Origin: Skermanella rosea
Lineage (GTDB): Bacteria > Pseudomonadota > Alphaproteobacteria > Azospirillales > Azospirillaceae
Assembly (NCBI RefSeq): GCF_016806835.2
Contig: NZ_CP086112.1
Span: 1 to 64,000, forward strand
Direction of reading: 5' to 3'
DNA length: 64,000 nt
Positions 31,904-50,150 of the stretch are shown one piece after another. A model generated the notes under the pieces. The model had not been told where the DNA came from, ran no database searches, and saw nothing but the letters and a program-made list of their open reading frames with translations. The position numbers were made by a program, and so were the translations under genes. The number at the start of each line of letters is the position of its first letter. The first letter of the stretch is position 1.

Positions 31904-32947
31904 TCAGTCCCGTCCTCCGGCCAGCAAGCGCCGGTAGATCGCGACATAGTCCGCGGCCATGCGGGTGTCGGTGAAGCGTTCCTCGAAGCGGCGGCGGACG
32001 GCGGCGCGGTCCAGGTCGGCGGCGCGGCCCACCGCGTCCACCGCCGCCTCCAGGCTGGTGACGGCGAAGCCGGTGATCCCGTCCTCGACCACCTCCGGCA
32101 CGGCGCCGCAGCGGTAGGCCACCACCGGGGTGCCGGTCGCCATGGCCTCGATCATGACCAGCCCGAACGGCTCCTCCCAGTCGATCGGGAACAGCAGCGC
32201 GCGCGCCTTGCCCAGGAAGCCGTCCTTCTCCGCGTCGTTCAGCTCGCCGACGACCTCGACCAGCGGATTGTCCAGGTACGGCTTCACCCGCTTGTCCCAG
32301 TAGGGGCGGTCCTGGTCGTACAGGGTCCCGGCCAGCTTGATCGGCATCCCGGCGGCCAGCGCGATCCGGATCGCCTCGTGCGGCTGCTTGGTCGGCGAGA
32401 AGCGGCCGATGAAGGCGAGATAGCCCCCGGGTTCGGGATTGAAGTTGTACAGATCAGCGGGAATGCCGTGATACACCGTCCCGGCCCAGCGCGCCTGCGG
32501 CAGCGGCAGTCGCTGGCGGTCGGAGATCGACACCAGCGGCATTTCCGGAACGGCATCGTACAGGATCCGCATGTCCGGCCCGCCCAGCGGCATGTGGAAG
32601 GTGGTCACGGTGCGGTCGGCGACGTCCATGAAGCAGGGGAAATGCATCCCCTCCTCGTGGAAATGGACGATGTCGAACTCTTCCAGGTGCCGGCGGACCA
32701 GCGCGAAATGGGCGGCGAAGTGGGGCAGCGCGTTGGCGACCTGGCTGCCGTTCAGCGCCGTCGCCCGCGACGCGAGCAGCCGGGCCGAGGTGACCGCGTC
32801 GCCGCAGGCGAACAGCGTGACGTCGTGCCCGGCGGCGACCAGGGCCTCGGTCAGGTACGAGACCGCCCGTTCCGTTCCGCCGAAGCGGGTCGGCGGGATC
32901 GGGAAGATGATGGAACCTACCTGGGCGATTCGAAGCGGGCGCGGCAT
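31904..32947 (-). CDS. GT4-family glycosyltransferase
   Basis: A 347-residue GT-B protein. The N-terminal domain begins MPRPLRIAQVGSIIFPIPPT with GGTERAVSYLTEALVAAGHD; the C-terminal domain has AFIGRFSPTKQPHEAIRIAL and the sugar-nucleotide motif EEPFGLVMIEAMATGTPVVA. It transfers a sugar from a nucleotide donor; acceptor unknown. Same strand as the NRPS, 211 bases downstream, with an AT-rich gap; a link to the NRPS product is possible but not shown. Confidence 0.9.
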   Translation of the reverse strand: MPRPLRIAQVGSIIFPIPPTRFGGTERAVSYLTEALVAAGHDVTLFACGDAVTSARLLASRATALNGSQVANALPHFAAHFALVRRHLEEFDIVHFHEEGMHFPCFMDVADRTVTTFHMPLGGPDMRILYDAVPEMPLVSISDRQRLPLPQARWAGTVYHGIPADLYNFNPEPGGYLAFIGRFSPTKQPHEAIRIALAAGMPIKLAGTLYDQDRPYWDKRVKPYLDNPLVEVVGELNDAEKDGFLGKARALLFPIDWEEPFGLVMIEAMATGTPVVAYRCGAVPEVVEDGITGFAVTSLEAAVDAVGRAADLDRAAVRRRFEERFTDTRMAADYVAIYRRLLAGGRD

Positions 32948-33158: not shown

Positions 33159-36100
33159 TCAAGCCGGCACGGGTTCGAGCACCCGCCCGATCGCGGCCGC
33201 CAGCTCCCCGACGAGCGGCTCCCTCATCACGGAGTGATGATCGCCGCCGGTCCGATGGACCGCGACCGATCCGGCTGCGATCTCCGACCAGCCGAGATCC
33301 GCCGCCAGCCCGGGACGGATGGCCAGCGCGTCGGTCACCCAGACGTCCACGGGCAGGTCGATCGGCCTGGGCCGGAAGTCCCGCAGGGCGTCCAGGTTGG
33401 CGCCGTAGACCGCCAGCATCCCGGCGACCTGGTCGCGCGTGACCGCCCCGCCGAACGCCCCGGTCGCGGCCAGCCGCCGGTGCACCAGGTCGATCCGGGT
33501 CTCCTGCCCGAACTGCTTCAGCACGGCGGCATCCAGGCCGAGATCGATCCCCATGGAGTGCTCGACCGCCCGGACCATGTGGAGCAGCCGCCCGGCCTCG
33601 TCCCCCGGCACGATGCCGTCCGCGAAGTCCTGCGGGTTGGCCGGCGCGTCGATCACGCAGACGCGGGCGACCGTCCGGCCGCGCGCCGCCAGCTCGCCGG
33701 CCAGGGCCGCGCCGAACGAGTAGCCGACCGGCACGAAGGGACCGGGCAGGCCGGCGGCCAGCACGGCGTCGGCATAGGCCCGCGCCATTTCCGGCAGCCC
33801 GCCGATCGGCGGCCGGGTATTGTCGAGCCCGCGCGCCTGGAGCGCCGCCACCCGCCAGCCCTCGGGCAGATGCGCGGCGAGCGCCGCGTAGCTGAGGACA
33901 TGGCCCGAGACCTCGTGCGGCAGCAGGATCGTGCCCCGCTCGCTCCCCGGCGGCACCGCCTCGGACCGCAGCATCACCAGCACCTCGTCGGCGCCTCCGG
34001 ACCGGGCGTCGATCAGCGCCGCCTGCCGGGCGACCGTCCCGCCGGAGAACAGGCTGGCCAGCGGCAGCCGGCAGCCGAACGCCGCCTCGACCCGGGCCAT
34101 CAGCTGGACCGCCAGGAACGAGTGCCCGCCAAGCTCGAAGAATCCGGCATGGACGGAGGTCACCGGCCGCTCCAGCACGGCGGACCAGATGTCGAGCAGC
34201 GCCGTCTCGGTGGCGCTCGGCGGGGCCAATCCGTCCGGGATGTCGGCCGCCGGTTCGGGCTCCGGCGCCCCGGCCCCCTCGTCCCGGCGCTCCAGGACGC
34301 CCTCCCCGGTCCAGCGCACCGTGATGCCGGTCGGGACCGGCGCCTCCCCCGGCCGCTCCAGCCAGAGCGTTCCCGGCAGGCCGACCGGCACCGGCGCCCG
34401 GTCGGCGTCCAGGACGTGGGGGATCGTTCCGGGAGCGACAAGATCGGCGGGCGCCCGCCCGGCCCGCTGCCAAGCCCGGATCGCCTCGGCCTCCGCCCCG
34501 GCGTCGGCCAGGGGAAGCCGCAGCGCGCCGGCCTCGGGACGGGCCGCCAGCTCGGCCAGAAGATGCGTCAGGTGCCGGGCCAGCCGCTCGACCGTTCCGG
34601 CATGGAACCGGTTGGCGTCGCATTCCAGGACGGCATTGATGCCGCCGCCCTCCTCGACCAGGGTCAGCAGCACGTCGAAACGGGCGACGCCGGCATCGTC
34701 GGCCAGCGGCGTGACGGTCAGCCCCGGCAGGTCGAGCCGCCCGCCCGGCGCGTTCTGAAGCACCATCATGGCCTGGAACAGCGGCGTCCGGTTGATCGAG
34801 CGCTTCAGCCCCAGGGCGTCCACCACCAGTTCGAACGGCGCGTCCTGGTGGGCATAGGCGTCCAGCGTCACCCGGCGCGCCCGCTCGACCAGTTCCAGCC
34901 CGGATGGGTTGCCCGACAGGTCCAGCCGAAGGGCCAGGGTATTGACGAAGCAGCCGATCAGCCCGGCCAGGTCGTCGCGCATGCGGTTCGCGATCGGCGT
35001 ACCCACCACCACGTCGGACTGCCCGCTCCAGCGCGACAAGAGCAGCGTAAACCCGGCATAGAGCACCATGAACAGCGTGGCGCCGCCGCGGTTCGCCAGC
35101 CCGCGCAGGGCTTCGGTCTCCGCGGCGCCGATCCGGAAGCGATGGCACCGGGCGGGGCGGTCCGCTCCGGATGCCCGCGGCGCATCGGCGGGAAGCTCCA
35201 GCACCTCCGGCGCGCCGGCCAGCCGCTCGCGCCAATGGCCGACCAGCCGTTCCAGGGCGGCGCCGGAAAGAGTCCGCTGCTGCCAGGCGGAGAAGTCGGC
35301 GTACTGGACCGGGAGCGGCGGCAAGTCCGCGGCCCGCCCCTCGGCGGCAGCGCGGTAAAGCTCCGTCACCTCCCGCGCCAGCACGCCCATCGACCAGCCG
35401 TCCGTGACGGCATGGTGGAGCACCGCCACCAGAACGGCGGAGCCGGGGGCGAGCCGGACCAGCGTCATCCGCAGCGGCGGCCCGCGGTCCAGGTCGATCG
35501 GCTCCAGCGCCAGCGGCCGCAGCGCCCGCCCCAGGCTCTCCGGATCCGGGCCGGCGGGAAGCGCGAATTCCGATCCGTCCAGCACGGCCCCGTCCAGCAC
35601 GGCCCCGTCCAGCACGGTCAGGGGCGCCTCGAACGGCTGCATGATCTCCTGGAAGGGCCGGCCGTCCACCACGGGGAAGCGGGTCCTCAGCGTCTCGTGC
35701 CGGGCGATCAGGCCGGTCAGCGCCCGGCGCAGCGCCGCCTCGTCCAGGTCGCCGTCCAGCTTCAGCCCCAGCGCCACGTTGTAGACGCCGGTGCCGGGCA
35801 TCAGCCGGTCCAGGAACCACAGGCGCTGCTGGGCGTAGGAGAGCGGCAGCACGCCGGTCCGGTCCGCCCGCGGGATGATCCCCTCGGCGGCCCCCTGCGC
35901 GGCGTCCGGCCCCAGCCGCTCCGCCATCTCGGCGGCGAACTCGGCGACCGTCGGCCGCTCGAACAGCAGGCGCAGCGGCAGGTCGATTCCGAACCGGGCG
36001 CGGATGCGGGCGATCACCCGCGTCGCCAGCAGCGAGTGGCCGCCGGCCTCGAAGAAATTGTCGCGGATGCCGACGCGGGCGATGCCCAGCACTTCCGCCC

Positions 36101-39100
36101 AGGTCTCCGCGACGGCGGCCTCCAGCGGGGTGCGCGGCGGTTCGCCGTCCGCCCCGGCCGCCGGCCCGTCCTCCCCCGGTTCCGGCAGGGCGCGGGCGTC
36201 CAGCTTGCCGGTCGGCCCGAGCGGCAGCCGGTCCAGGAAGACGAAGGCGCCGGGCACCATGTGTTCCGGCAGGCGGGACGCCGCGTGGCGGCGCAGCGCG
36301 CGGCCCAGCGTGCCGCGCCGGTCCGGCGGCGCGGGCTCGTTGAGATAGGCGGCCGGCGCCTCGGCGGCGGCCGGCGCCGGCGCGCATCCCGCCGGCATCG
36401 GCTCGCCCGGCCGGCGGAACCAGACGTCCAGGCGCCCGTCCTCCGTCCCGGCGGTCCATCCCGGGACCGCCTCCCAGCCATGCTCCCGGGCAAGCCGAGC
36501 GATCGCCGCCCCGTCCAGCCCGTCCGCCGGATCGACGGGCGGCCCGTCCGCCTCGATCCAGGCCAGCGCCTCCAGCGGCCGGGCCAGCCGCCGGTTCGGG
36601 ACGCCGGAGATGCCGAAGCCGGAACCCTCCCGCGCCAGCCTGCCGGCCAGCAGTCCCTCCCCATCGCCATCGGCCCAAAGCGAATATTCCGCCGCCGCAA
36701 CGGTCCCGGCTCCGCCCTTGACCGTGACGACGGCGTCGTACCGGAAGCGGGTCAACTCGTTGTCTCCCGCCGCGGCCTTCGGCATGGCGATCACGCCGGC
36801 CACGTCGGGCCGCCGCGCCAGCGCCGCGAAGAAGGCGGGATCGACCAGGATCTCCTTCTCGCGCTCGACCGCCCGCGCCAGCCGGCGCGCCAGCTCCAGC
36901 CGGGTCCGCCCCGCCCCGGTCGCGGCGGCGATGTCGGCATGGAACGCCCGGAGCAGCACGCGGTTGCGCAGATCGCCCAGGAACAGCCGCCCGCCGGGCG
37001 CCAGCCGGGCCAGCGCGCCCTCCACCACCGCCATGAAATAGGCGCGGCTCGGGAAATATTGCGCGACCGAATTGATCACGACCAGGTCGAAGCCGCCGGG
37101 CACCCCGTCCAGGTCGGCGGCCTCCCGCCGCTCCACCGTGACATGGTCCAGCCCCCGGTCCGCCGCGGCGCGGCGCAGCCGCTCGACCACCGGGGCGGAG
37201 AAGTCCAGCCCGTGGTACAGCTCGACCGACGGCGCCAGCCCGAACAGGATCATCCCGGTGCCGCAGCCGATCTCCAGCACCCGGCGCGTCGCCAGCGCCC
37301 GCAGCCGGTCCAGCGTCTCGTCCAGCCAGGCGCGCATCTCCGCCGCGGGGATCGGCGCGTTGGTGTAGCTGTCGTTCCAGCCGGAGATGTCGAAGTCCTG
37401 CGCTTCCCCATCCCCGCCATAGATCATGTCGAAGGCGGCGCGCCAGCCCTCGTCGGCCTCGGCCTCGCCCCCTGCCTCGCCCCCTGCCTCACCGTCAGCG
37501 CCGGGGCGCGGGACGACATAGGCGACCAGCCGCTTGGCGTCGCCCTCCCCGCGCGGCACCACCGCCACGTCGCCGACCGCCGGGTGGTCGGACAGCACGG
37601 CGTGGATCTCGCCCAGCTCGATCCGGAACCCGCGCAGCTTCACCTGGGCGTCGGCGCGCCCGCGATATTCCAGGTCGCCCGCCGGGGTGACCCGGGCCAG
37701 GTCGCCGCTGCGGTACAGGAGCCCGCCGCCGGCGGGATCCAGGACGAAGCGTTCCGCCGTCAGCTCCGGCCGGTTCAGGTATCCCCGCGCCACGCCGGCC
37801 CCGCCGACCCAGATCTCCCCGACCATGCCGGGCGGCACCGGCTCGCCGTTTCCGTCGAGCAGGCGGATGAACAGGTCCGGGATCGGCTCGCCGATGACGC
37901 TGCCCAGCCGGCGCTTGACGTCGCGCCAGCGGATCGGCCGATAGGTCACGTGGACGGTCGTCTCGGTGATGCCGTACATGTTGACCAGCCGCGGCGCGTC
38001 GTCGCCGTGGCGGTCCAGCCAGGGCTCCAGGCTGGCGAGGTCCAGCGCCTCGCCGCCGAACACCACGAAGCGCAGCGCCAGCTCGGATTCGCGCGGGTCC
38101 GCCTCCTCCGCCTGGATCAACTGGCGGAAGGCCGACGGCGTCTGGTTCAGCACCGTCACCTTCTCGCGGCACAGCAGGTCGTAGAAGGCGTCGGCCGCCC
38201 GCGCCACCTCGCGCGGGACGATCACCAGCGCGCCGCCATAAGCCAGGGCGCCCCAGATCTCCCAGACCGAGAAGTCGAAGGCGTAGGAATGGAACAGGGT
38301 CCAGACGTCCCGCGCGCCGAAGCGGAACCACGCGTCCGTCGCGTCGAACAGCCGGGTCAGGTTGCCGTGGGTGACCAGCACGCCCTTGGGCCTGCCGGTC
38401 GAGCCGGAGGTGTAGATCACATAGGCCAGGTCGTCCGGCCCGACCGAGACCGGGACGAACCCCTCGGCATCGGCGTCCCCGCAGTCCTCGACGCACAGCA
38501 CCGGCACCCCGGTCCCCGCCGGCACCCGGGGCGCCAGCGCTTCCGTCGTCACGACGGCCGCGACGCCGCTGTCCTCCAGCGCGTGGGCGACCCGGTCGGC
38601 GGGATAGTGCGGATCGAGCGGGACATAGGCCGCCCCCGCCCGCAGCACGCCCAGGATCGCCGCCGGCATCTCCAGGGAAGGCTCGAACCACAGGGCGACG
38701 CGGTCGCCGGCGCCGATCCCCAGCGCCCCCAGCCGCCCGGCGATCGCGGCGGACCGCCGCTCCAGGCTCCCGTAGGTTTGCCGCTCGCCGTTCAGCCTCA
38801 ACGCCGTGGCCGCGGCCCGCTCCCGCGCATGGCGGACGAACCGGTCGTGGACCCCCTCGGCGAAGGGCGCCGCCGGGCGCTTCGGCCCGGTCAGCAGCGC
38901 CGCCCGCTCGTCCGGCCCGATCAGCGGCAGGCGCGACACCGGCGTGTCCGGCGCCGCCGCGGCACTCTCCGCCAGGGTCGCGAACTGGCGCGCCAGCCGG
39001 GCGACCGACTCCGCCTCGAACAGGTCCGTGTTGTAGGAGAACACCCCGGACAGGCCGCCGCCCGGCTCCTCCCGGATGAACAGCTCCAGGTCGAAGCGGG

Positions 39101-40343
39101 CCGCCTCCTGGGTCAGAAGCGGCTCGACCGCGAACTCCCCGCCGGCGGTCGGCGGCGGGGCCGCGTCCAGCAGCGTGAAGGCGACCTGGAACAGCGGGTT
39201 CCTGCTGGTGTCGCGCGGCAGGTCCAGCGCCTCCACCAGCATCTCGAACGGCAGGGTCGCGTGGTCGAACGCCTCCAGCACCAGCCCGCGCTGCCGCTCC
39301 AGCAGCGCCCGGAACCCGGGATCGCCGGAGAGGTCGCCGCGCACCACCACCATGTTGACGAAGAACCCGACCAGCCCCTGGGTCTCCAGCCGCTCCCGGT
39401 TCGCCAGCGAGGTGCCGACCGGCACGTCGTCCTGCCGGCAATGCCGCCCCAGCAGCACCTGGAAGACGGTCATCAGGGCGGTGAACTGGGTGGTCCGCGC
39501 GGCGGACGCCAGCCGGCGCAGCCGGTCCGCCGTCCCGGCCGGGATGGTGAAGGGGACCAGCGCGCCGTTGAAGCCCTGGAGGCGCGGGCGCGGCCTGTCG
39601 GTCGGCAGGTCCAGCACCGGCAGCCCGGCCAGCCGCCCGCGCCAGTAGTCCAGGTCGCCGGCGACGCTGTCGGGCCCGTAGCTCTCCCGCTGCCACGCCG
39701 CGAAGTCGGCGTAGGAGACCGGCAGCGGCGCCCAGGCCGGGGCGGCGCCGGACAGCCGCGCCCGGTAGGCCGACAGCAGGTCGCCCGACAGGATGCCCAG
39801 CGACCAGGCGTCGGCGGCGATATGGTGGATCGCCAGGACGATCGCGGTCCGCGACTCCGCGATCCGGATCGCCGACGCCCGCAGCGGCGGTCCCCGGCCC
39901 AGGTCGAACGGCCGCGCGCTCTCCTCGCGGATCGCCGCCGCCAGGGCCTCGGCGTCCTCCGCCCGGTCCCGCCAGTCGCGCAGGTCCACCGGGACCGGCC
40001 CCGCCGGCTCGACCACCTGCTCGCCCTCGCCGTCGCGCTCCTCGTAGCGGGTGCGCAGGACGGCGTGGCGGGCGACCACGTCGCCGACCGCCGCCTCGAA
40101 GGCCTCCGGCTCGAACCGCCCGCCCAGCCGGAAGGCCAGGCAGATCGTGTAGGCGGCGTTCCCGTCCAGCCGGTGCAGGTACCACATGCGCCGCTGCTGG
40201 AACGACAGCGGAGCCCGGTGCGGCCCGCCGTCCATCCGGCGGGACTCCATGGCGGCCTTGCGCTGCGGCGGCGGATCGCCGTCTTCGTCCAGGAGAAAGT
40301 CGAGAAGGTCCAGGTCGGCTTCGCTGCTGTCGATATCTGGCAT
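33159..40343 (-). CDS. Nonribosomal peptide synthetase, C-A-nMT-PCP-C-(A remnant)-PCP-TE
   Basis: A 2,394-residue enzyme. C1 is at about 42-485 (HHIAADAW at 173). The A domain runs from about 500 (YTSGSTGRPKG near 644) with an N-methyltransferase inserted at about 985-1225 (VLEIGCGTG near 1022) and A10 lysine near 1380. PCP1 Ser is near 1437 (FFEAGGHSLL). C2 has HHAVTDGW near 1643. About 1945-2025 keeps only pieces of a second A domain. PCP2 Ser is near 2075 (FFELGGHSFL), and a type I thioesterase has GYSFG near 2207. Hand alignment gives the pocket code D-F-W-N-V-G-M-V-H-K, close to that of threonine, so N-methyl-threonine is predicted. No A domain is left for PCP2. The N-terminal C domain suggests an acyl or upstream donor. 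No clear Shine-Dalgarno precedes the ATG at 40343. Confidence 0.93.
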   Translation of the reverse strand: MPDIDSSEADLDLLDFLLDEDGDPPPQRKAAMESRRMDGGPHRAPLSFQQRRMWYLHRLDGNAAYTICLAFRLGGRFEPEAFEAAVGDVVARHAVLRTRYEERDGEGEQVVEPAGPVPVDLRDWRDRAEDAEALAAAIREESARPFDLGRGPPLRASAIRIAESRTAIVLAIHHIAADAWSLGILSGDLLSAYRARLSGAAPAWAPLPVSYADFAAWQRESYGPDSVAGDLDYWRGRLAGLPVLDLPTDRPRPRLQGFNGALVPFTIPAGTADRLRRLASAARTTQFTALMTVFQVLLGRHCRQDDVPVGTSLANRERLETQGLVGFFVNMVVVRGDLSGDPGFRALLERQRGLVLEAFDHATLPFEMLVEALDLPRDTSRNPLFQVAFTLLDAAPPPTAGGEFAVEPLLTQEAARFDLELFIREEPGGGLSGVFSYNTDLFEAESVARLARQFATLAESAAAAPDTPVSRLPLIGPDERAALLTGPKRPAAPFAEGVHDRFVRHARERAAATALRLNGERQTYGSLERRSAAIAGRLGALGIGAGDRVALWFEPSLEMPAAILGVLRAGAAYVPLDPHYPADRVAHALEDSGVAAVVTTEALAPRVPAGTGVPVLCVEDCGDADAEGFVPVSVGPDDLAYVIYTSGSTGRPKGVLVTHGNLTRLFDATDAWFRFGARDVWTLFHSYAFDFSVWEIWGALAYGGALVIVPREVARAADAFYDLLCREKVTVLNQTPSAFRQLIQAEEADPRESELALRFVVFGGEALDLASLEPWLDRHGDDAPRLVNMYGITETTVHVTYRPIRWRDVKRRLGSVIGEPIPDLFIRLLDGNGEPVPPGMVGEIWVGGAGVARGYLNRPELTAERFVLDPAGGGLLYRSGDLARVTPAGDLEYRGRADAQVKLRGFRIELGEIHAVLSDHPAVGDVAVVPRGEGDAKRLVAYVVPRPGADGEAGGEAGGEAEADEGWRAAFDMIYGGDGEAQDFDISGWNDSYTNAPIPAAEMRAWLDETLDRLRALATRRVLEIGCGTGMILFGLAPSVELYHGLDFSAPVVERLRRAAADRGLDHVTVERREAADLDGVPGGFDLVVINSVAQYFPSRAYFMAVVEGALARLAPGGRLFLGDLRNRVLLRAFHADIAAATGAGRTRLELARRLARAVEREKEILVDPAFFAALARRPDVAGVIAMPKAAAGDNELTRFRYDAVVTVKGGAGTVAAAEYSLWADGDGEGLLAGRLAREGSGFGISGVPNRRLARPLEALAWIEADGPPVDPADGLDGAAIARLAREHGWEAVPGWTAGTEDGRLDVWFRRPGEPMPAGCAPAPAAAEAPAAYLNEPAPPDRRGTLGRALRRHAASRLPEHMVPGAFVFLDRLPLGPTGKLDARALPEPGEDGPAAGADGEPPRTPLEAAVAETWAEVLGIARVGIRDNFFEAGGHSLLATRVIARIRARFGIDLPLRLLFERPTVAEFAAEMAERLGPDAAQGAAEGIIPRADRTGVLPLSYAQQRLWFLDRLMPGTGVYNVALGLKLDGDLDEAALRRALTGLIARHETLRTRFPVVDGRPFQEIMQPFEAPLTVLDGAVLDGAVLDGSEFALPAGPDPESLGRALRPLALEPIDLDRGPPLRMTLVRLAPGSAVLVAVLHHAVTDGWSMGVLAREVTELYRAAAEGRAADLPPLPVQYADFSAWQQRTLSGAALERLVGHWRERLAGAPEVLELPADAPRASGADRPARCHRFRIGAAETEALRGLANRGGATLFMVLYAGFTLLLSRWSGQSDVVVGTPIANRMRDDLAGLIGCFVNTLALRLDLSGNPSGLELVERARRVTLDAYAHQDAPFELVVDALGLKRSINRTPLFQAMMVLQNAPGGRLDLPGLTVTPLADDAGVARFDVLLTLVEEGGGINAVLECDANRFHAGTVERLARHLTHLLAELAARPEAGALRLPLADAGAEAEAIRAWQRAGRAPADLVAPGTIPHVLDADRAPVPVGLPGTLWLERPGEAPVPTGITVRWTGEGVLERRDEGAGAPEPEPAADIPDGLAPPSATETALLDIWSAVLERPVTSVHAGFFELGGHSFLAVQLMARVEAAFGCRLPLASLFSGGTVARQAALIDARSGGADEVLVMLRSEAVPPGSERGTILLPHEVSGHVLSYAALAAHLPEGWRVAALQARGLDNTRPPIGGLPEMARAYADAVLAAGLPGPFVPVGYSFGAALAGELAARGRTVARVCVIDAPANPQDFADGIVPGDEAGRLLHMVRAVEHSMGIDLGLDAAVLKQFGQETRIDLVHRRLAATGAFGGAVTRDQVAGMLAVYGANLDALRDFRPRPIDLPVDVWVTDALAIRPGLAADLGWSEIAAGSVAVHRTGGDHHSVMREPLVGELAAAIGRVLEPVPA
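34269..34511 (-). other. Fossil adenylation domain inside NRPS module 2
   Basis: Residues about 1945-2025. After C2 comes a normal C-A linker (EAEAIRAWQRAGRAPADLV), then directly HVLDADRAPVPVGLPGTLWL, which corresponds to the region before and at A6, and then ITVRWTGEGVLERRDEG, resembling A7-A8 (VRW..DG.LE..GR.D). About 400 residues, including the A3-A5 catalytic core, are missing without a frameshift. PCP2 follows immediately. Confidence 0.7.
35576..35620 (-). repeat. Three 15-bp tandem units in NRPS C2
   Basis: The unit CGTCCAGCACGGCCC occurs three times in a row (the last with two changes), encoding a repeated VLDGA in the second condensation domain near residue 1577-1590. In-frame expansion of five residues per unit; probably slippage in a surface loop. 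Confidence 0.7.
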
Positions 40344-41044: not shown

Positions 41045-41824
41045 ATGGTGGCAGCCCCGGGAAATCCCGACATCTACTACGTGATGTCCGATGAGCCGGC
41101 CGTGTCCGACCTCTGCGACTCCTACCGTTCCCTGCTGGCTCCGGAGGAGATGGAGCGCTACCGGCGCTACCTGAACGACCGGGCGCGGCGCGAATACCTC
41201 GTGACCCGGGCGCTGGTCCGCACCGTGCTGTCCCGCTACGCCGACGTTCCCCCGGCCGCCTGGCGGTTCAACTCGAACGCCCATGGCCGGCCGGAGATCG
41301 CCGGCCCCGCCCTGCCCGGCCCTGACCTCTCCGGCCTCCGCTTCAACCTGTCCAACACGAACGGGCTGGTCGCCTGCGCCGTCGCCGCCGGCTGCGAGAT
41401 CGGCATCGACGTCGAGTGCCTGGAGCGCGCCGGCGACGTGATGGAGCTCGCCGACCGCTTCCTCGCCCCGGCGGAAGCGGCCGACCTGCGATCGCTTCCG
41501 CCCGCCGGCCGGCCCCTCCGATTTTTCACCTACTGGACCCTGAAGGAGGCCTACGTCAAGGCGCGGGGCCTCGGCCTGTCGATCCCGCTCGACGGCTTCG
41601 CCATCGACCTCTCCGATCCCGCCCGCATCCGCATCGCCTTCGAACCCGGCCTGGAGGACGACGCCGCCCGCTGGTCCTTCGCGACCTTCCGGCCGACCGG
41701 GAACCATCTGATGGCGGTGGCGGTCGGGCGGCCCGACGGATGCCCGCCTGCCCCGCCCCTCCAGGCCCGCCTGCACCGGGTCGTTCCGCTGGGCACCACC
41801 GGCGGGCCGGGCGCGGCCCGCTGA
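41045..41824 (+). CDS. Sfp-type 4'-phosphopantetheinyl transferase
   Basis: A 259-residue enzyme that converts apo carrier proteins to the holo form with coenzyme A. Motifs: FNSNAHGRPEI, FNLSNTNGLVACAV, GIDVECLER (Mg-binding), and FFTYWTLKEAYVKARGLGLS. The length fits the Sfp/EntD class that acts on NRPS carriers. It lies 0.7 kb from the NRPS start in divergent orientation, so it most likely activates PCP1 and PCP2. Confidence 0.93.
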   Translation: MVAAPGNPDIYYVMSDEPAVSDLCDSYRSLLAPEEMERYRRYLNDRARREYLVTRALVRTVLSRYADVPPAAWRFNSNAHGRPEIAGPALPGPDLSGLRFNLSNTNGLVACAVAAGCEIGIDVECLERAGDVMELADRFLAPAEAADLRSLPPAGRPLRFFTYWTLKEAYVKARGLGLSIPLDGFAIDLSDPARIRIAFEPGLEDDAARWSFATFRPTGNHLMAVAVGRPDGCPPAPPLQARLHRVVPLGTTGGPGAAR

Positions 41825-41858: not shown

Positions 41859-42563
41859 TCAGTCGTCGGACTGGAGGAACAGCAGCGGCGCCAGCTCCTC
41901 GCCGGCGGCGACCTGGCTGTAGCATGCGGCGGTGTTGGCCGCCCAGTTGGTGTTGATCGCATAGGTGACGTCGAGCGTGGTCTCGCCGGTTTCCGAGAAA
42001 TCGACGAGCAGCGCGGGGGAGAGGAGCTGATAGGCCGCCATCCCTGCGGTCAGCGGATCGGTGTCGAACGCGATCAGGACCGTTTCGGCGGGGGTGACGA
42101 CGTCGATGATCCCGCCGTAGAGCGGCAGGGCGAAAGTCGGTTCGTACGCGCCGCCGACACCCTGCCAGGAAAGCTGCTGGCACAGGCCGCAGAGGAACTC
42201 GCTGGTGGTCGTGTTGTCGATATAGATCTCGGTCGCGGAGCCGTTGGCGACCACTTCCCCGGTTCCGGCGGCCGATGTCACCTGAAGGGTCTGGCCGGCC
42301 GTGATCGAGTAGGTCGTGCTGGCGACGACCGGCTGCCCCTGCGCCAGGGTCGTGCTCGCGGTCGGCGAGGTATAGGCTTCCGTCGACGTGTTCCAGCCGA
42401 CCGTGTTCGACAGGCTGTATCCGGTAGTCTGGAACCAGACCACCGGGGCGCCGCCCCCCATGGTGGTGCACACCGCCTTGAAGACGAGCAGCCTGAATCC
42501 CGACCCTATGAGGTCGGTCAGCGTGTCCTGATCCATCGTGATCTGAATGCTGTAACTGCCCAA
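41859..42563 (-). CDS. Beta-rich protein of unknown function, paralogue A
   Basis: A 234-residue protein rich in Thr, Ser, Val, Ala and aromatic residues, with no signal peptide, membrane span or known motif. It starts MGSYSIQITMDQDTLTDLIG, then GGGAPVVWFQTTGYSLSN. A central segment (SAAGTGEVVANGSATEIYID) and FALPLYGGIIDVVTPAE suggest beta strands. It is clearly related to the next gene (SIQITMDQDTLTDLIGSG versus TLTITMDDTTVNDLLNSG). The pair lies between the phosphopantetheinyl transferase and an exporter locus. I do not recognise a characterised family; a secreted lectin- or toxin-like role is only a guess. Confidence 0.7.
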   Translation of the reverse strand: MGSYSIQITMDQDTLTDLIGSGFRLLVFKAVCTTMGGGAPVVWFQTTGYSLSNTVGWNTSTEAYTSPTASTTLAQGQPVVASTTYSITAGQTLQVTSAAGTGEVVANGSATEIYIDNTTTSEFLCGLCQQLSWQGVGGAYEPTFALPLYGGIIDVVTPAETVLIAFDTDPLTAGMAAYQLLSPALLVDFSETGETTLDVTYAINTNWAANTAACYSQVAAGEELAPLLFLQSDD

Positions 42564-42676: not shown

Positions 42677-43357
42677 TCAGGACGACTGGACCAGGATCGG
42701 GGTGATGTCGGTGGCGGCCGGGTACTGGGTGCACCATCCCTCGGTGTTGCCCGACCAGTTGTTGTTGATGTCGTAGCTGATCGTCGCCGCGGTCATTCCG
42801 GTCATGTTGACCAGCAGGCTGGGCGCGTAGCACTGGTAGACGACCGACCCCGTGTCCACCTGCTCGGTCTGGAAGACCACCATGACCTGTTCGACCGGCG
42901 TGATGGTGTCCAGGTTGTTGCCGTAGAGCGGCAGCGCGCAGAGCTGGGAGCCCGCCGAGCCCTGGACCGACTGGGAGATGCCGCAGGTGAACTGGGTGCT
43001 GGTCTGGTTGAGGATGGAGATGACGCTGGCGTCGGACGAGTTGACGACCGTGCCGGTGCCCGCGACGGAGTTCACCTGGAGCTCCTGGCCCAGGTTGATG
43101 GGGTAGCTGGCGCTGGCGTTGATGACCGTGCCGTCGGTGAAGCTCGTCTCCGTCGAGGTGTAGGCCTCGTAGCTCTCGGTCCAGGTGATCACCGTGTTTT
43201 CCGAGATGGTCTGGGTCTGGAACCAGACCAGCGGCGCGCCGCCGTTCGCGTTGGCCGCCTGTACCGCCTTGTAGGCGTACAAGTAATAGCCGGAGTTCAG
43301 CAGGTCATTGACGGTAGTATCGTCCATGGTGATGGTCAGCGTATAGGTGGTCGACAT
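42677..43357 (-). CDS. Beta-rich protein of unknown function, paralogue B
   Basis: A 226-residue protein, paralogue of the gene 112 bases downstream. It starts MSTTYTLTITMDDTTVNDLL and has NGGAPLVWFQTQ, NSVAGTGTVVNSSDASVISI, FTCGISQSVQG and LCALPLYGNNLDTITPVEQ. These align end to end with paralogue A, including the two Cys-containing segments. No export signal. The gene is preceded by an AT-rich intergenic segment that may hold its promoter. Function unknown. Confidence 0.72.
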   Translation of the reverse strand: MSTTYTLTITMDDTTVNDLLNSGYYLYAYKAVQAANANGGAPLVWFQTQTISENTVITWTESYEAYTSTETSFTDGTVINASASYPINLGQELQVNSVAGTGTVVNSSDASVISILNQTSTQFTCGISQSVQGSAGSQLCALPLYGNNLDTITPVEQVMVVFQTEQVDTGSVVYQCYAPSLLVNMTGMTAATISYDINNNWSGNTEGWCTQYPAATDITPILVQSS

Positions 43358-46937: not shown

Positions 46938-49900
46938 ATGGACACGATCGAGACCGTCAGGAACACCGCAGCACTCGAAGCGATCCGCTCCGTGCTCCAG
47001 ACCCATGTCCTGTTCAACGTGCTTCCCGCCGCCGAGAAGCGCGCGATCGAACTGCTGCTGGAGGTGCGCCAGGTCCCGGCCGGCAAGCGCCTGTTCACCC
47101 AGGGGGCCGCCGCCGACGGCATGTACGTGATCCACGACGGCACCGCGCGCCTGAAGGAGAACACGGGATCCAAGCTGGTCAGCGTCGGCCTGATCGAGCC
47201 GGGCGCCACCATAGGCCAGACCTCCCTGCTGGAGGAGACCCGGTGGCCGCACCACGTCATCGCCGAGACGCCGCTGACGCTGGTCTGCCTGCGCGCCGAC
47301 CGCGCCCGCCTGCTGATCGCCGAAAGCCGCGTCGTCGACGAGCATTTCCGCCGCTATGTCGGCCTGGTGGAGGTCGGCGAGCGGCTCCGCGCCCTGCTCG
47401 GCAACGCGACATACTCGGCGGAGGAGTTCTCCGACCTGCTGTCGAAGATGGGCGTCAAACTGATCCGGGCGGACAGCGCGGTCTTCACCCAGGGCGACCA
47501 CGACCCGCGCCTCTACTTCATCGAGAGCGGCGCCGTCGAGCTGATCCGCGCCCCGATCTCCGGCGACCCGATCTCCCTGTCGCGCTGCGGCCGGGGCACC
47601 CTGATCGGCGAGACCGGCGCCCTGCCCCGCCGCTCGCCCAAGGGGGCCGCCAGCGGCATCCAGACCTACACCGCCAGGGCGCTGACCGACGTGACCGTGC
47701 TGGTGATCTACCAGCAGACGGTCGAGCGCATCCTGTCGCTCAATCCCGAGCTTCGCCAGCGCCTGTCCGAGCGCGCCCGCGACATCGAGCAGATCGAGGC
47801 CGACGAGATCGCGGCCCGCAAGCGGGCGGAGGGGGTGGACCTCCGCATCAAGCTGGCCGAGGGCATGTCGGAGGACGAGTTCCGCGCCGCCGCCAAGGCG
47901 AAGGAGGCCACCAGGCTGGCGGTGATCCGCCAGAACACCCAGGCCGACAGCGCCGCCGCCTGCCTCGCCATGGTGATGGGCCATTACGGCCGCAAGTTCA
48001 CCCTCGGCCAGATGCAGGAGGTCACCGGCCTCAACACGCCGGAGACCAACCCGGACGAGATCATCCGCGGCGCCGAGACGCTGGGCTTCCGCGCCAAGGG
48101 CTACGCCCTGACCTATGCCGACCTGAAGGGGCTGAAGCTGCCCGCCATCATCGGCTGGCAGGGCTATCACTGGATCGTGCTGGTCAAGGCCGGCGACCGG
48201 GAGGTGGAGGTCGCCGACCCCGCCAAGGGCCTGGCCAGGATCAAGCGGGACGAGTTCATCGCCTCCTGGACGGCGGCCGACGTGGCCGGCGTGCTCGACC
48301 GCCGGCCCGACGCCGGCGTGCTGATCGCGCTGGAGCCGACGGTCAAGTTCGAGAAGGAGGAGGAGGCCAAGTCCTCCATCCGCCACTTCATCAACTACAT
48401 CATGCCGTACAAGAAATATTACGGCGAAGCGATCCTGGCGGCGGTCGTGATCAACATCCTGGGCCTCGCCTCGCCGCTGTTCGTCCAGACCATCGTGGAC
48501 AACGTCGTGGTCCACCACGACGTGGGCCTGCTCAACATGATGCTGGGCGGCATGGTGCTGGTGGCGGTGCTGACCACGGCCATGTCGGTGGTTCAGAGCC
48601 TTCTGCTGGCCCACACCACGTCCCGGCTCGACATGCGGCTGATGTCTGAGTTCTACCGGCACGTGCTCAGCCTGCCGATGGACTTCTTCCTGACCAAGAA
48701 CAAGGGCGAGATCCTGGCCCGCTTCGGCGAGAACCAGAAGATTCGCGCCATCCTGACCGGCTCGACCATCACGGTGCTGATGAACACGCTGATGATCGTG
48801 CTCTATTTCCTGATGATGTTCGCCTATTCGGTGCCGCTCAGCGTGATCGTGGTGATCTTCATCCCGATCTATATCGGCATCGTCGTGTACTTCACCCCCA
48901 AGATCAAGGCGATCGCGCAGGAGATCTTCATCACCAACTCGCAGTCCCAGTCCTACCTGATCGAGAGCCTGAACGGCATCGAGGCGCTGAAGGCGACCAG
49001 CAACGAATACTTCGCCCGCGCCCGGTGGGAGAACGCCTTCGTCGAGAACGTCAACCGCAGCTTCCGCCAGCAGAAGCTGAGCCTGATGTCCAACAGCCTG
49101 TTCAAGCTCGCCACGCTGGCGTCCAGCATCGCCGTGCTCTGGATCGGCGCCACCCAGGTGATGAGCGGCGACATGAGCATCGGCGAGCTGATGGGCTTCA
49201 ACATGCTGATGGGGCTGGTCACCGGCCCGGTCACCCAGATGGTCAACCTGTGGAACGAGCTCCAGGAGGTCCGCATCGCGATCGACCGCGTCGGCGACGT
49301 GCTGAACGTGAAGTCGGAGCACGTGACCGTCTCCGCCCCGGACAAGATCCAGACCCAGGTCCGCAACCTGGAAGGCGAGATCAAGTTCGAGCAGGTCAAT
49401 TTCAGCTACAACACCAACGACCAGAAGCGGTCGGTCATGCACGGCTTCGACCTGACCATCCATCCGGGCGAGCACGTCGCCTTCGTCGGTCCGTCCGGCT
49501 GCGGCAAGAGCACGATCGCCAAGATGGTGCTGGGCTTCTACAAGCCGGCGTCCGGCGACCTGATGATCGACGGCAAGGACATCCGGACCATGGACCTCAA
49601 CTCGCTGCGCCGGAACATCGGCGTGGTGCTCCAGGACACCTTCATCTTCGGCGGCACCGTGGCCGAGAACATCGCATTGGGCGACCCGGAGCCGGACATG
49701 CAGGCGGTGCAGGAAGCGGCGAAGCTGGCGGGGTCGGAGGACTTCATCATCAACTTCCCTCTGGGCTACCAGACCCGCATCGGCGAGAAGGGCATGGGCC
49801 TGTCGGGCGGCCAGCGCCAGCGCATCGGCATCGCCCGCGCCCTCTACCGCCGGCCCAAGATCATGATCTTCGACGAGGCGACCAGCGCGCTCGACAACGA

Positions 49901-50150
49901 GTCCGAGGCCCGCATCACCCAGGAGCTGAAGGGAGTCCTGGTCAACCGCACCTCGATCACCATCGCCCACCGCCTGACCACCGTGATGGACAGCGACCGC
50001 ATCTGCTTCATCAAGGACGGCAAGGTCCAGGAACAGGGCACCCATACCCAGCTCACCGACCCCGAATTCCTCAAGGAGAACGGCTACACCGGCCTCTACT
50101 ACCAGCTCGCCCGGACCCAGTTCGACCTGCCCGCGCTGGAGTTGAAATGA
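46938..50150 (+). CDS. ABC exporter with two cNMP-binding-like domains and a degenerate C39-like domain
   Basis: A 1,070-residue protein. Two cyclic-nucleotide-binding-like domains are at about 22-130 and 160-275 (for example RLFTQGAAADGMYVIHDGTA; AVFTQGDHDPRLYFIESGAV). A C39 peptidase-like domain follows at about 330-445: the catalytic Cys motif is changed to DSAAACLAM (Ser338 in place of Cys), while His (GYHWIVL, 411) and Asp (ADPAKG, 427) remain. Six membrane helices cover about 480-760. The NBD has GPSGCGKST at 851, LSGGQ at 955 and IMIFDE at 975. It probably exports a peptide or protein without cleaving a leader, perhaps gated by a nucleotide ligand. Partner: the upstream HlyD protein. 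Confidence 0.92.
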   Translation: MDTIETVRNTAALEAIRSVLQTHVLFNVLPAAEKRAIELLLEVRQVPAGKRLFTQGAAADGMYVIHDGTARLKENTGSKLVSVGLIEPGATIGQTSLLEETRWPHHVIAETPLTLVCLRADRARLLIAESRVVDEHFRRYVGLVEVGERLRALLGNATYSAEEFSDLLSKMGVKLIRADSAVFTQGDHDPRLYFIESGAVELIRAPISGDPISLSRCGRGTLIGETGALPRRSPKGAASGIQTYTARALTDVTVLVIYQQTVERILSLNPELRQRLSERARDIEQIEADEIAARKRAEGVDLRIKLAEGMSEDEFRAAAKAKEATRLAVIRQNTQADSAAACLAMVMGHYGRKFTLGQMQEVTGLNTPETNPDEIIRGAETLGFRAKGYALTYADLKGLKLPAIIGWQGYHWIVLVKAGDREVEVADPAKGLARIKRDEFIASWTAADVAGVLDRRPDAGVLIALEPTVKFEKEEEAKSSIRHFINYIMPYKKYYGEAILAAVVINILGLASPLFVQTIVDNVVVHHDVGLLNMMLGGMVLVAVLTTAMSVVQSLLLAHTTSRLDMRLMSEFYRHVLSLPMDFFLTKNKGEILARFGENQKIRAILTGSTITVLMNTLMIVLYFLMMFAYSVPLSVIVVIFIPIYIGIVVYFTPKIKAIAQEIFITNSQSQSYLIESLNGIEALKATSNEYFARARWENAFVENVNRSFRQQKLSLMSNSLFKLATLASSIAVLWIGATQVMSGDMSIGELMGFNMLMGLVTGPVTQMVNLWNELQEVRIAIDRVGDVLNVKSEHVTVSAPDKIQTQVRNLEGEIKFEQVNFSYNTNDQKRSVMHGFDLTIHPGEHVAFVGPSGCGKSTIAKMVLGFYKPASGDLMIDGKDIRTMDLNSLRRNIGVVLQDTFIFGGTVAENIALGDPEPDMQAVQEAAKLAGSEDFIINFPLGYQTRIGEKGMGLSGGQRQRIGIARALYRRPKIMIFDEATSALDNESEARITQELKGVLVNRTSITIAHRLTTVMDSDRICFIKDGKVQEQGTHTQLTDPEFLKENGYTGLYYQLARTQFDLPALELK

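What the first reader, a model, noticed from the sequence alone, without database searches (positions are those of the whole stretch)
34269..34511. A collapsed (ghost) adenylation domain in NRPS module 2
Between C2 and PCP2 the protein keeps a normal C-A linker, a stretch like the sequence just before A6, and an A7-A8-like stretch, but about 400 residues carrying A3-A5 are missing with no frameshift. Known NRPSs with missing A domains usually lack them cleanly. The scar suggests step-wise deletion while the rest stayed under selection. PCP2 must be loaded in trans, by A1, or the module may only pass the peptide to the thioesterase.
Basis: partly seen in the sequence, partly recalled or inferred. 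Interest (0 to 1): 0.72.

Follow-up and report, generated by a model that had tools for sequence, protein, structure and literature searches.

The report
Shrunken adenylation domain in peptide synthetase
In Skermanella bacteria a peptide-building enzyme has lost almost all of one amino-acid-activating domain and kept only a small foldable sheet of it, so the last carrier of the assembly line is probably charged by the complete activating domain further up in the same enzyme, a shortcut shown before in a fungal iron-carrier synthetase.

Summary
The NRPS (window 33159-40343, minus, 2394 aa) reads C1-A1(Thr)-MT-PCP1-C2-[ghost]-PCP2-TE. The C2-to-PCP2 gap is 102 aa, against a median of 538 aa in 149 long C-to-PCP joins. 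It carries a true A-domain remnant: profile-profile E 2.6e-9, score 64.3 against at most 23.1 in 100 column shuffles. What is left is the two strands before A6 plus the A7 hairpin (weak by itself). A1-A5, the A6 core and A8-A10 are gone. The ghost sits in 4 of 5 Skermanella genomes held. AlphaFold2 gives a four-stranded sheet; the 50 best Foldseek hits are adenylating enzymes, among them a 77-residue A-domain fragment solved with an MbtH-like protein, though no MbtH match was found in this genome. C2, PCP2 and TE keep their motifs and low dN/dS. The genome has no other condensation domain and one other NRPS-type A domain, in a polyamino-acid-synthetase-like protein. A1 most likely charges both carriers, as in fungal SidD; release by a free amine, as in glidonin, is the main rival. 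Partial A domains are known; this is a new, extreme variant.

The parts
33159..40343 (-). NRPS gene, 2394 aa: C1-A1-MT-PCP1-C2-[ghost A]-PCP2-TE
   Evidence: open frame; Pfam domains; orthologues L056, L057, L058
38892..40217 (-). C1 condensation domain; motif HHIAADAWS (Gly of HHxxxDG replaced by Ala) in all four species
37464..38837 (-). A1 adenylation domain up to about the inserted methyltransferase (residues 503 to about 960); pocket code D-F-W-N-V-G-M-V-H-K read by motif, listed for Thr in PMC9113097
36984..37277 (-). methyltransferase domain inserted into A1 between A8 and A10 (residues 1023-1120)
   Evidence: Pfam Methyltransf_12; SAM motif
36198..36227 (-). A10 motif of A1 (LPLGPTGKLD), downstream of the methyltransferase
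35931..36116 (-). PCP1 (GGHS)
34524..35855 (-). C2 condensation domain, HHAVTDGWS intact
   Evidence: dN/dS 0.18-0.27 against this copy
34356..34430 (-). ghost, first piece (residues 1972-1996): the two strands before A6
   Evidence: profile 27.3 bits, 0 of 1000 shuffles; hhalign score 45.7 against at most 18.4 in 60 shuffles; strands 1974-1978 and 1991-1996 in AF2
34284..34346 (-). ghost, second piece (residues 2000-2020): A7-like hairpin; the Asp of TGD is lost and the A6 core before it is deleted
   Evidence: colinear hhalign alignment; marginal alone; strands 2003-2011 and 2017-2019 in AF2
34011..34202 (-). PCP2, FFELGGHSFL intact (Ser2075)
   Evidence: dN/dS 0.13-0.24 against this copy
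33225..33926 (-). TE thioesterase domain (Pfam, residues 2140-2373); GYSFGA (Ser2209), candidate Asp and His motifs present
41045..41824 (+). 4'-phosphopantetheinyl transferase, near the NRPS in all four species
   Evidence: Pfam ACPS; tblastn
31904..32947 (-). glycosyltransferase family 4, directly downstream, conserved in all four species

Best explanation
The segment is the remnant of an A domain that has been reduced to one small folding unit, the four-stranded sheet of the A core that holds the strands before A6 and the A7 hairpin. With A3, A5, the pocket and A10 gone it cannot activate an amino acid. It survives as a folded spacer that links C2 to PCP2 (inferred). C2, PCP2 and TE remain active (inferred from intact motifs and purifying selection). 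The only complete A domain of the protein, the Thr-type A1, charges PCP1 and, across the module boundary, PCP2 (inferred). C2 then joins the two units and TE releases the product, so the expected core is a Thr-Thr type dipeptide, probably methylated by the inserted MT and acylated through C1 (both inferred).
For: Identity: hhalign E 2.6e-9 and shuffle controls; Pfam PF00501 E 9e-4 for the S. aerolata copy, below the curated cut-off; 9 of 11 PDB sequence hits at E up to 10 are NRPS A domains; the 50 listed Foldseek hits are adenylating enzymes. Folding: block pLDDT 82-89 over the sheet within C2-ghost-PCP2 and 84-87 when folded alone. Function of the rest: dN/dS against this copy is 0.18-0.27 for C2, 0.13-0.24 for PCP2 and 0.29-0.45 for TE in three comparisons; PCP2 and TE serines kept. 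Supply: this gene holds 2 of 2 Condensation domains found in the genome; only 2 of 26 TIGR01733 matches pass the cut-off, A1 and a membrane protein like polyamino-acid synthetases; carrier domains found in the genome are PCP1, PCP2, that protein's own, and one 140-aa ACP-like frame. Precedents: SidD A1 loads T1 and T2 beside a truncated A (passages); CmnA-A1 loads CmnI (abstract).
Against: No loading has been measured. Conservation of PCP2 does not separate this from the glidonin rival, where T13 is also essential in vivo. The A7-like piece is weak on its own. Own and L058 ghosts have no Pfam hit and no Foldseek hit reaches E 1e-3; the ghost-alone model has a mean pLDDT of only 71.5, and only four rows cover the ghost. 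The ghost has a higher dN/dS than C2 and PCP2 (0.21-0.63), which also fits a spacer under little constraint. Three of the four species have further NRPS A domains that could help.
Confidence: 0.6

Rival explanations
1. Glidonin-like release: C2 takes a free amine as acceptor and joins it to the PCP1-bound chain; PCP2 and the remnant only stabilise the protein.
For: In glidonin GdnB, C13-A*-T13-TE has a partial A domain, C13 condenses free putrescine, inactivating T13 abolishes the product in vivo, and A*-T13 are needed for stability (passages). It needs no second A domain, and no clearly suitable one is seen in this genome. A conserved PCP2 fits it too.
Against: The TE keeps its Ser and candidate Asp/His motifs and a dN/dS of 0.29-0.45, which fits a PCP2-bound product; in glidonin the TE seems not to be needed for release. 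GdnB A* keeps the A-sub part, the opposite of what is kept here. The acceptor site of C2 could not be compared with C13.
Confidence: 0.2
2. A separate A or A-T enzyme charges PCP2, as SyrB1 serves SyrE.
For: The SyrE end is also C-T-TE without A (PMC8949500, passage). S. mucosa, S. aerolata and the fourth species have more NRPS A domains.
Against: In the window's own genome the only other A above the NRPS cut-off is in a polyamino-acid-synthetase-like membrane protein, and no free A-T pair is seen. Ten further proteins, taken from the 25 AMP-binding matches, all match acyl-CoA ligase families best, 5 of 10 above a cut-off; the rest were not named.
Confidence: 0.08
3. Module 2 is dead: C2-ghost-PCP2 is a decaying tail and only module 1 plus TE matters.
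For: The ghost has a raised dN/dS (0.21-0.63) and its flanks vary in length between species.
Against: C2, PCP2 and TE keep their motifs across four species with low dN/dS; no stop or frameshift in the copies read.
Confidence: 0.09
4. The segment is an ordinary C-PCP linker that resembles A domains by chance.
For: A7-like piece alone is marginal; own copy has no Pfam hit.
Against: 0 of 4000 shuffles (1000 per sequence) reach the pre-A6 scores; 5 of 5 other A-less joins lack the signal; the 50 listed fold hits are adenylating enzymes.
Confidence: 0.02

Closest known systems
SidD / Nps6 fungal siderophore NRPS, module 2 with truncated A (dA)
   Same: Complete A in module 1, truncated A in module 2; SidD A1 shown to load T1 and T2 (PMC10192304, passages)
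   Different: That dA lacks about 290 N-terminal residues; here only about 50 residues of recognisable A core are left and A-sub is gone too; bacterial; ends in TE
Glidonin synthetase GdnB module 13 (C13-A*-T13-TE)
   Same: Bacterial terminal module with a partial A domain between C and T, followed by TE (PMC10587159, passages)
   Different: A* keeps only the A-sub part; here only a core sheet is kept; GdnB has two TE parts and uses free putrescine
Capreomycin CmnI and syringomycin SyrE end module
   Same: C-T unit without its own A, served by another A (abstract; passage)
   Different: Described as lacking A; no remnant was mentioned in the text I saw
FscH A-domain fragment bound to MbtH-like FscK (PDB 6eby, chain B, 77 aa)
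   Same: Spans the pre-A6 to A7 stretch (it aligns to that stretch of A1) and matches the predicted ghost fold (Foldseek rank 4, rmsd 2.2)
   Different: It keeps the A6 core and was solved with an MbtH-like protein; no MbtH match was found in this genome
Glycopeptide X-TE region
   Same: Remnant of a lost module, with A-like homology reported near TE (PMC8949500, passage)
   Different: There the C domain became a P450 platform; here C2 keeps its motif

Membership tests
Functional NRPS A domain | A3, A5, substrate code, A7 Asp, A8, A10 Lys present | tested here: not met
   Only profile columns 356-438 of 588 align, with the A6 core deleted; A7 TGD reads TGI in this copy; no A-sub signal
Remnant of the NRPS A core | Significant, colinear homology to an A-core segment | tested here: met
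   hhalign E 2.6e-9, score 64.3 against at most 23.1 in 100 shuffles
Remnant of the NRPS A core | Same local fold as adenylating enzymes | tested here: met
   AF2 sheet with block pLDDT 84-87 (mean of the whole model 71.5); the 50 listed of 557 Foldseek hits are adenylating enzymes, best E 4.3e-3. A prediction, not a structure
Partial-A module served by another A (SidD type) | Truncated A before T, in frame, with a complete A in the same protein | tested here: met
Partial-A module served by another A (SidD type) | Complete A loads both carriers | not testable with these tools
   needs mass spectrometry of PCP1 and PCP2
Glidonin-type amine-releasing end module | C domain uses a free amine | not testable with these tools
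   acceptor-site residues of GdnB not at hand
Glidonin-type amine-releasing end module | A* consists of the A-sub part | tested here: not met
   A-sub profile -1.5 to -0.2 bits, 65 to 242 of 1000 shuffles as good
Clean A-less C-T module | Short C-T linker without A homology | tested here: not met
   gap 102-124 aa with pre-A6 23-34 bits, against 25-57 aa and -1.7 to 1.4 bits in 5 clean joins
MbtH-dependent A domain | MbtH-like protein in the genome | tested here: not met
   0 matches in own genome and in G004; 1 each in G002 and G003; 150 of 179 and 150 of 189 first-look candidates scored in own genome and G004

The most novel reading that the evidence does not exclude
An NRPS A domain can wither to its smallest folding unit, the MbtH-interface sheet, and be kept as a docking spacer that holds PCP2 where the upstream A1 can reach it, giving a bacterial, single-protein, SidD-like line in which one A domain charges two carriers.
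Probability: 0.3. Interest if true: 0.65.

Novelty: new variant of a known kind. Interest (0 to 1): 0.45.

Why it matters
Engineers who cut and join NRPS modules need to know what must stay between C and PCP. Four species keep about the same 50 residues of a lost A domain, and these match a stretch that was solved as a fragment with its MbtH partner. That makes a concrete test possible: is this sheet a minimal linker that lets a C-PCP unit work, and does it let one A domain serve two carriers? It also looks like an intermediate between a complete module and the clean A-less modules.

Tried and rejected
Pfam alone does not see the ghost in this copy. A C-A linker profile, an A-sub profile and the flanks gave nothing above shuffles. 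The class-wide profile scan (18 of 385 genomes with matches at E 1e-12; at most 7 candidates scored per genome, so not exhaustive) gave three hits, in one genus, that start before the ghost; reading them showed complete A domains. In the family search other rows also cross the ghost part of the query; 13 such places, from 11 genomes, were opened and every one carries an A domain: 11 of 13 align to most or all of the A profile, the other 2 start inside the stretch taken and have an insertion near A8. Rows not listed were not seen. The MbtH-docking idea is not favoured: no MbtH match in own genome or in G004. That this case is absent from print is not proved: full-text searches for partial, truncated, degenerate, remnant or vestigial A domains and for Skermanella with nonribosomal peptide (listing only) gave the precedents cited and no paper that I recognised as this case, in an open-licence library only.

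Full report
What is there. The window lies in a Skermanella genome (7.76 Mb, 7 contigs). The nearest record in the plasmid collection is Skermanella mucosa plasmid pSM-2. One minus-strand gene, 33159-40343, encodes 2394 aa. Domains are C1, A1 with an inserted methyltransferase, PCP1, C2, PCP2 and TE. The span of the finding, 34269-34511, is residues 1945-2025, between C2 and PCP2.

Is an A domain missing? The C-to-PCP gap is 102 aa here, and 102, 114 and 124 aa in three orthologues. In the NRPS sequences fetched by then, 149 other distinct C-to-PCP joins of 350 aa or more have a median gap of 538 aa (10-90%: 523-565; 137 of 149 lie in 400-600). About 430 aa are gone, in frame.

Is something left of it? 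I built a profile from 160 complete A domains. The whole profile scores the four ghosts at 10.6 (own), 11.2, 20.8 and 15.1 bits; of 2000 shuffles the best reached 2.7. The sub-profile for the strands before A6 scores 27.3 here and 26.9, 37.0 and 30.4 in the orthologues; none of 1000 shuffles of each reaches it. The A7 sub-profile gives 6.7, 8.4, 4.6 and 5.2 bits; 1, 0, 5 and 2 of 1000 shuffles reach that, so it is marginal alone. Profile against profile, the four-sequence ghost aligns to A columns 356-438 of 588 with probability 96.2 and E 2.6e-9, through both pieces and across the deleted A6 core. The score of 64.3 compares with at most 23.1 in 100 column shuffles. By pieces, with 60 shuffles each: pre-A6 45.7 (shuffles at most 18.4), A7 21.5 (at most 18.7), upstream flank 11.9 (up to 19.3), downstream flank 10.0 (up to 10.0). 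Other searches: Pfam PF00501 E 9e-4 for the S. aerolata ghost and 0.043 for S. mucosa, both below the curated cut-off, none for own and L058. In the whole PDB sequence set 9 of 11 hits up to E 10 are NRPS A domains, best E 0.011; the other 2 are carbonic anhydrases.

Fold. AlphaFold2 on C2-ghost-PCP2 (45 rows, of which 4 cover the ghost) gives strands at residues 1974-1978, 1991-1996, 2003-2011 and 2017-2019 with block pLDDT 82-89, and disorder at 2022-2039. The ghost alone with 4 rows gives the same sheet, block pLDDT 84-87, mean of the model 71.5, pTM 0.53. Foldseek with that model against 350,542 PDB chains finds 557 matches up to E 10, none at 1e-3 or better; the 50 listed are adenylating enzymes, five of them (tt0168) by recall and the others by title. 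Rank 4 is 6eby chain B, 77 residues, rmsd 2.2, from the structure of MbtH-like FscK with the interface-forming region of the FscH A domain. As a check, the pre-A6 to A7 stretch of A1 aligns to residues 5-76 of that chain, named 'Amino acid adenylation', while the MbtH query hits another, 81-residue sequence of the entry. So a piece that spans pre-A6 to A7 has been solved by itself with its partner; the ghost is that piece without the A6 core. Own genome and G004 have no MbtH match; G002 and G003 have one each. I therefore read the ghost as a folding unit rather than an MbtH dock. The scan scored 150 of 179 first-look candidates in own genome, so a missed small gene cannot be excluded.

Who has it? 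The fifth, G001, has no Condensation match. In 82 genomes of the family (at most 34 candidates scored in each) no other ghost was found: 13 other places whose match crosses the ghost part of the query were opened and all carry an A domain; unlisted rows were not seen. A phosphopantetheinyl transferase lies near the gene and a family 4 glycosyltransferase downstream in all four. In residues 1972-2020, 18 of 49 positions are invariant in the four (G, V, L, P, P, G, L, P, G, L, W; R, W, T, G, L, E, R). S. aerolata keeps a more A-like start (LGRPAAGVSAAVLD), so I infer that erosion went on after the common loss.

Is the module alive? dN/dS against this copy (S. mucosa, S. aerolata, G004): C2 0.181, 0.269, 0.231; PCP2 0.189, 0.128, 0.242; TE 0.448, 0.288, 0.293; ghost core 0.214, 0.629, 0.399; N-side linker 0.424, 0.664, 0.540; C-side linker 0.732, 0.477, 0.314 with dS near saturation in the last two. 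The ghost is looser than C2 and PCP2 in all three comparisons, only slightly in the S. mucosa pair, where it is tighter than TE; it is tighter than the N-side linker in all three. C2 keeps HHA(V/I)TDGWS, PCP2 GGHS and TE GYS(F/Y)GA in the four copies.

What could charge PCP2? A1 reads D-F-W-N-V-G-M-V-H by motif in own, S. mucosa, S. aerolata and G004; the A10 Lys that completes the code was located in own, S. mucosa and G004, not by motif in S. aerolata. The motif-to-position reading is from recall. A table in PMC9113097 gives DFWNVGMVHK for Thr (passage). In own genome 2 of 26 TIGR01733 matches pass the cut-off: A1 and a 1452-aa frame with A, carrier, and membrane and hexapeptide-like stretches. 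I compare that frame with polyamino-acid synthetases such as PosA by recall and by reading. Both Condensation domains found in the genome are in this gene. Carrier domains found are PCP1, PCP2, the one in that frame and a 140-aa ACP-like frame. Ten other AMP-binding proteins were scanned: all match acyl-CoA ligase families best, 5 of 10 above a cut-off. A1 is the simplest donor. PCP2 conservation alone does not prove loading: in glidonin T13 is essential in vivo although C13 uses a free amine.

Compared with what is known. SidD and Nps6 module 2 has a truncated A lacking about 290 N-terminal residues, and SidD A1 loads T1 and T2 (PMC10192304, passages). Glidonin GdnB ends in C13-A*-T13-TE; A* keeps only A-sub, C13 uses free putrescine, and A*-T13 are needed for stability (PMC10587159, passages). 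S. pombe sib1 has a degenerate A (PMC2644324, passages). CmnI is charged by CmnA-A1 (PMC12400406, abstract). HMWP2 of yersiniabactin is a further case that I only recall. In my own sample, 5 other A-less joins are clean: gaps 25-57 aa, pre-A6 score -1.7 to 1.4 bits. The kind is known; the piece kept here, a core sheet without A-sub, is one I did not find described in the searches named in Tried and rejected.

Shown, inferred, open. Shown: remnant identity, in-frame loss, conservation in four species, neighbours intact by motif and dN/dS. Predicted: the sheet. Inferred: A1 charges both carriers, a Thr-Thr type core, TE release. Open: the product, the role of the ghost, and the order of the deletions.

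Noticed in passing
G000:C2 356518-357714 (frame in L189, 8024-12379): A 1452-aa frame with an A domain, a carrier and membrane/hexapeptide-like stretches, resembling poly-amino-acid synthetases such as PosA by reading and recall. Frames of 1443 aa in S. mucosa and 1370 aa in S. aerolata also carry an A domain and a carrier.
   Followed up: partly
39801-39830: C1 has HHIAADAWS, with Ala for the Gly of HHxxxDG, in all four copies read. The first, but not the second, C domain of the two-module NRPSs in L203 and L204 has the same change.
   Followed up: no
46938-50150: A 1070-aa protein with cyclic-nucleotide-binding, peptidase C39 and ABC transporter domains; a relative (89% identity) lies close to the phosphopantetheinyl transferase in S. 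aerolata (L196), so it may export the product.
   Followed up: no
41859-42563 and 42677-43357: Two neighbouring minus-strand frames, about 40% alike by cross-hits in S. mucosa, without any Pfam match at E 1e-3.
   Followed up: no
L058 and L193 (G004): In the fourth species the NRPS is split over two contig ends, C84 and C29; it was read in two pieces and not joined.
   Followed up: no
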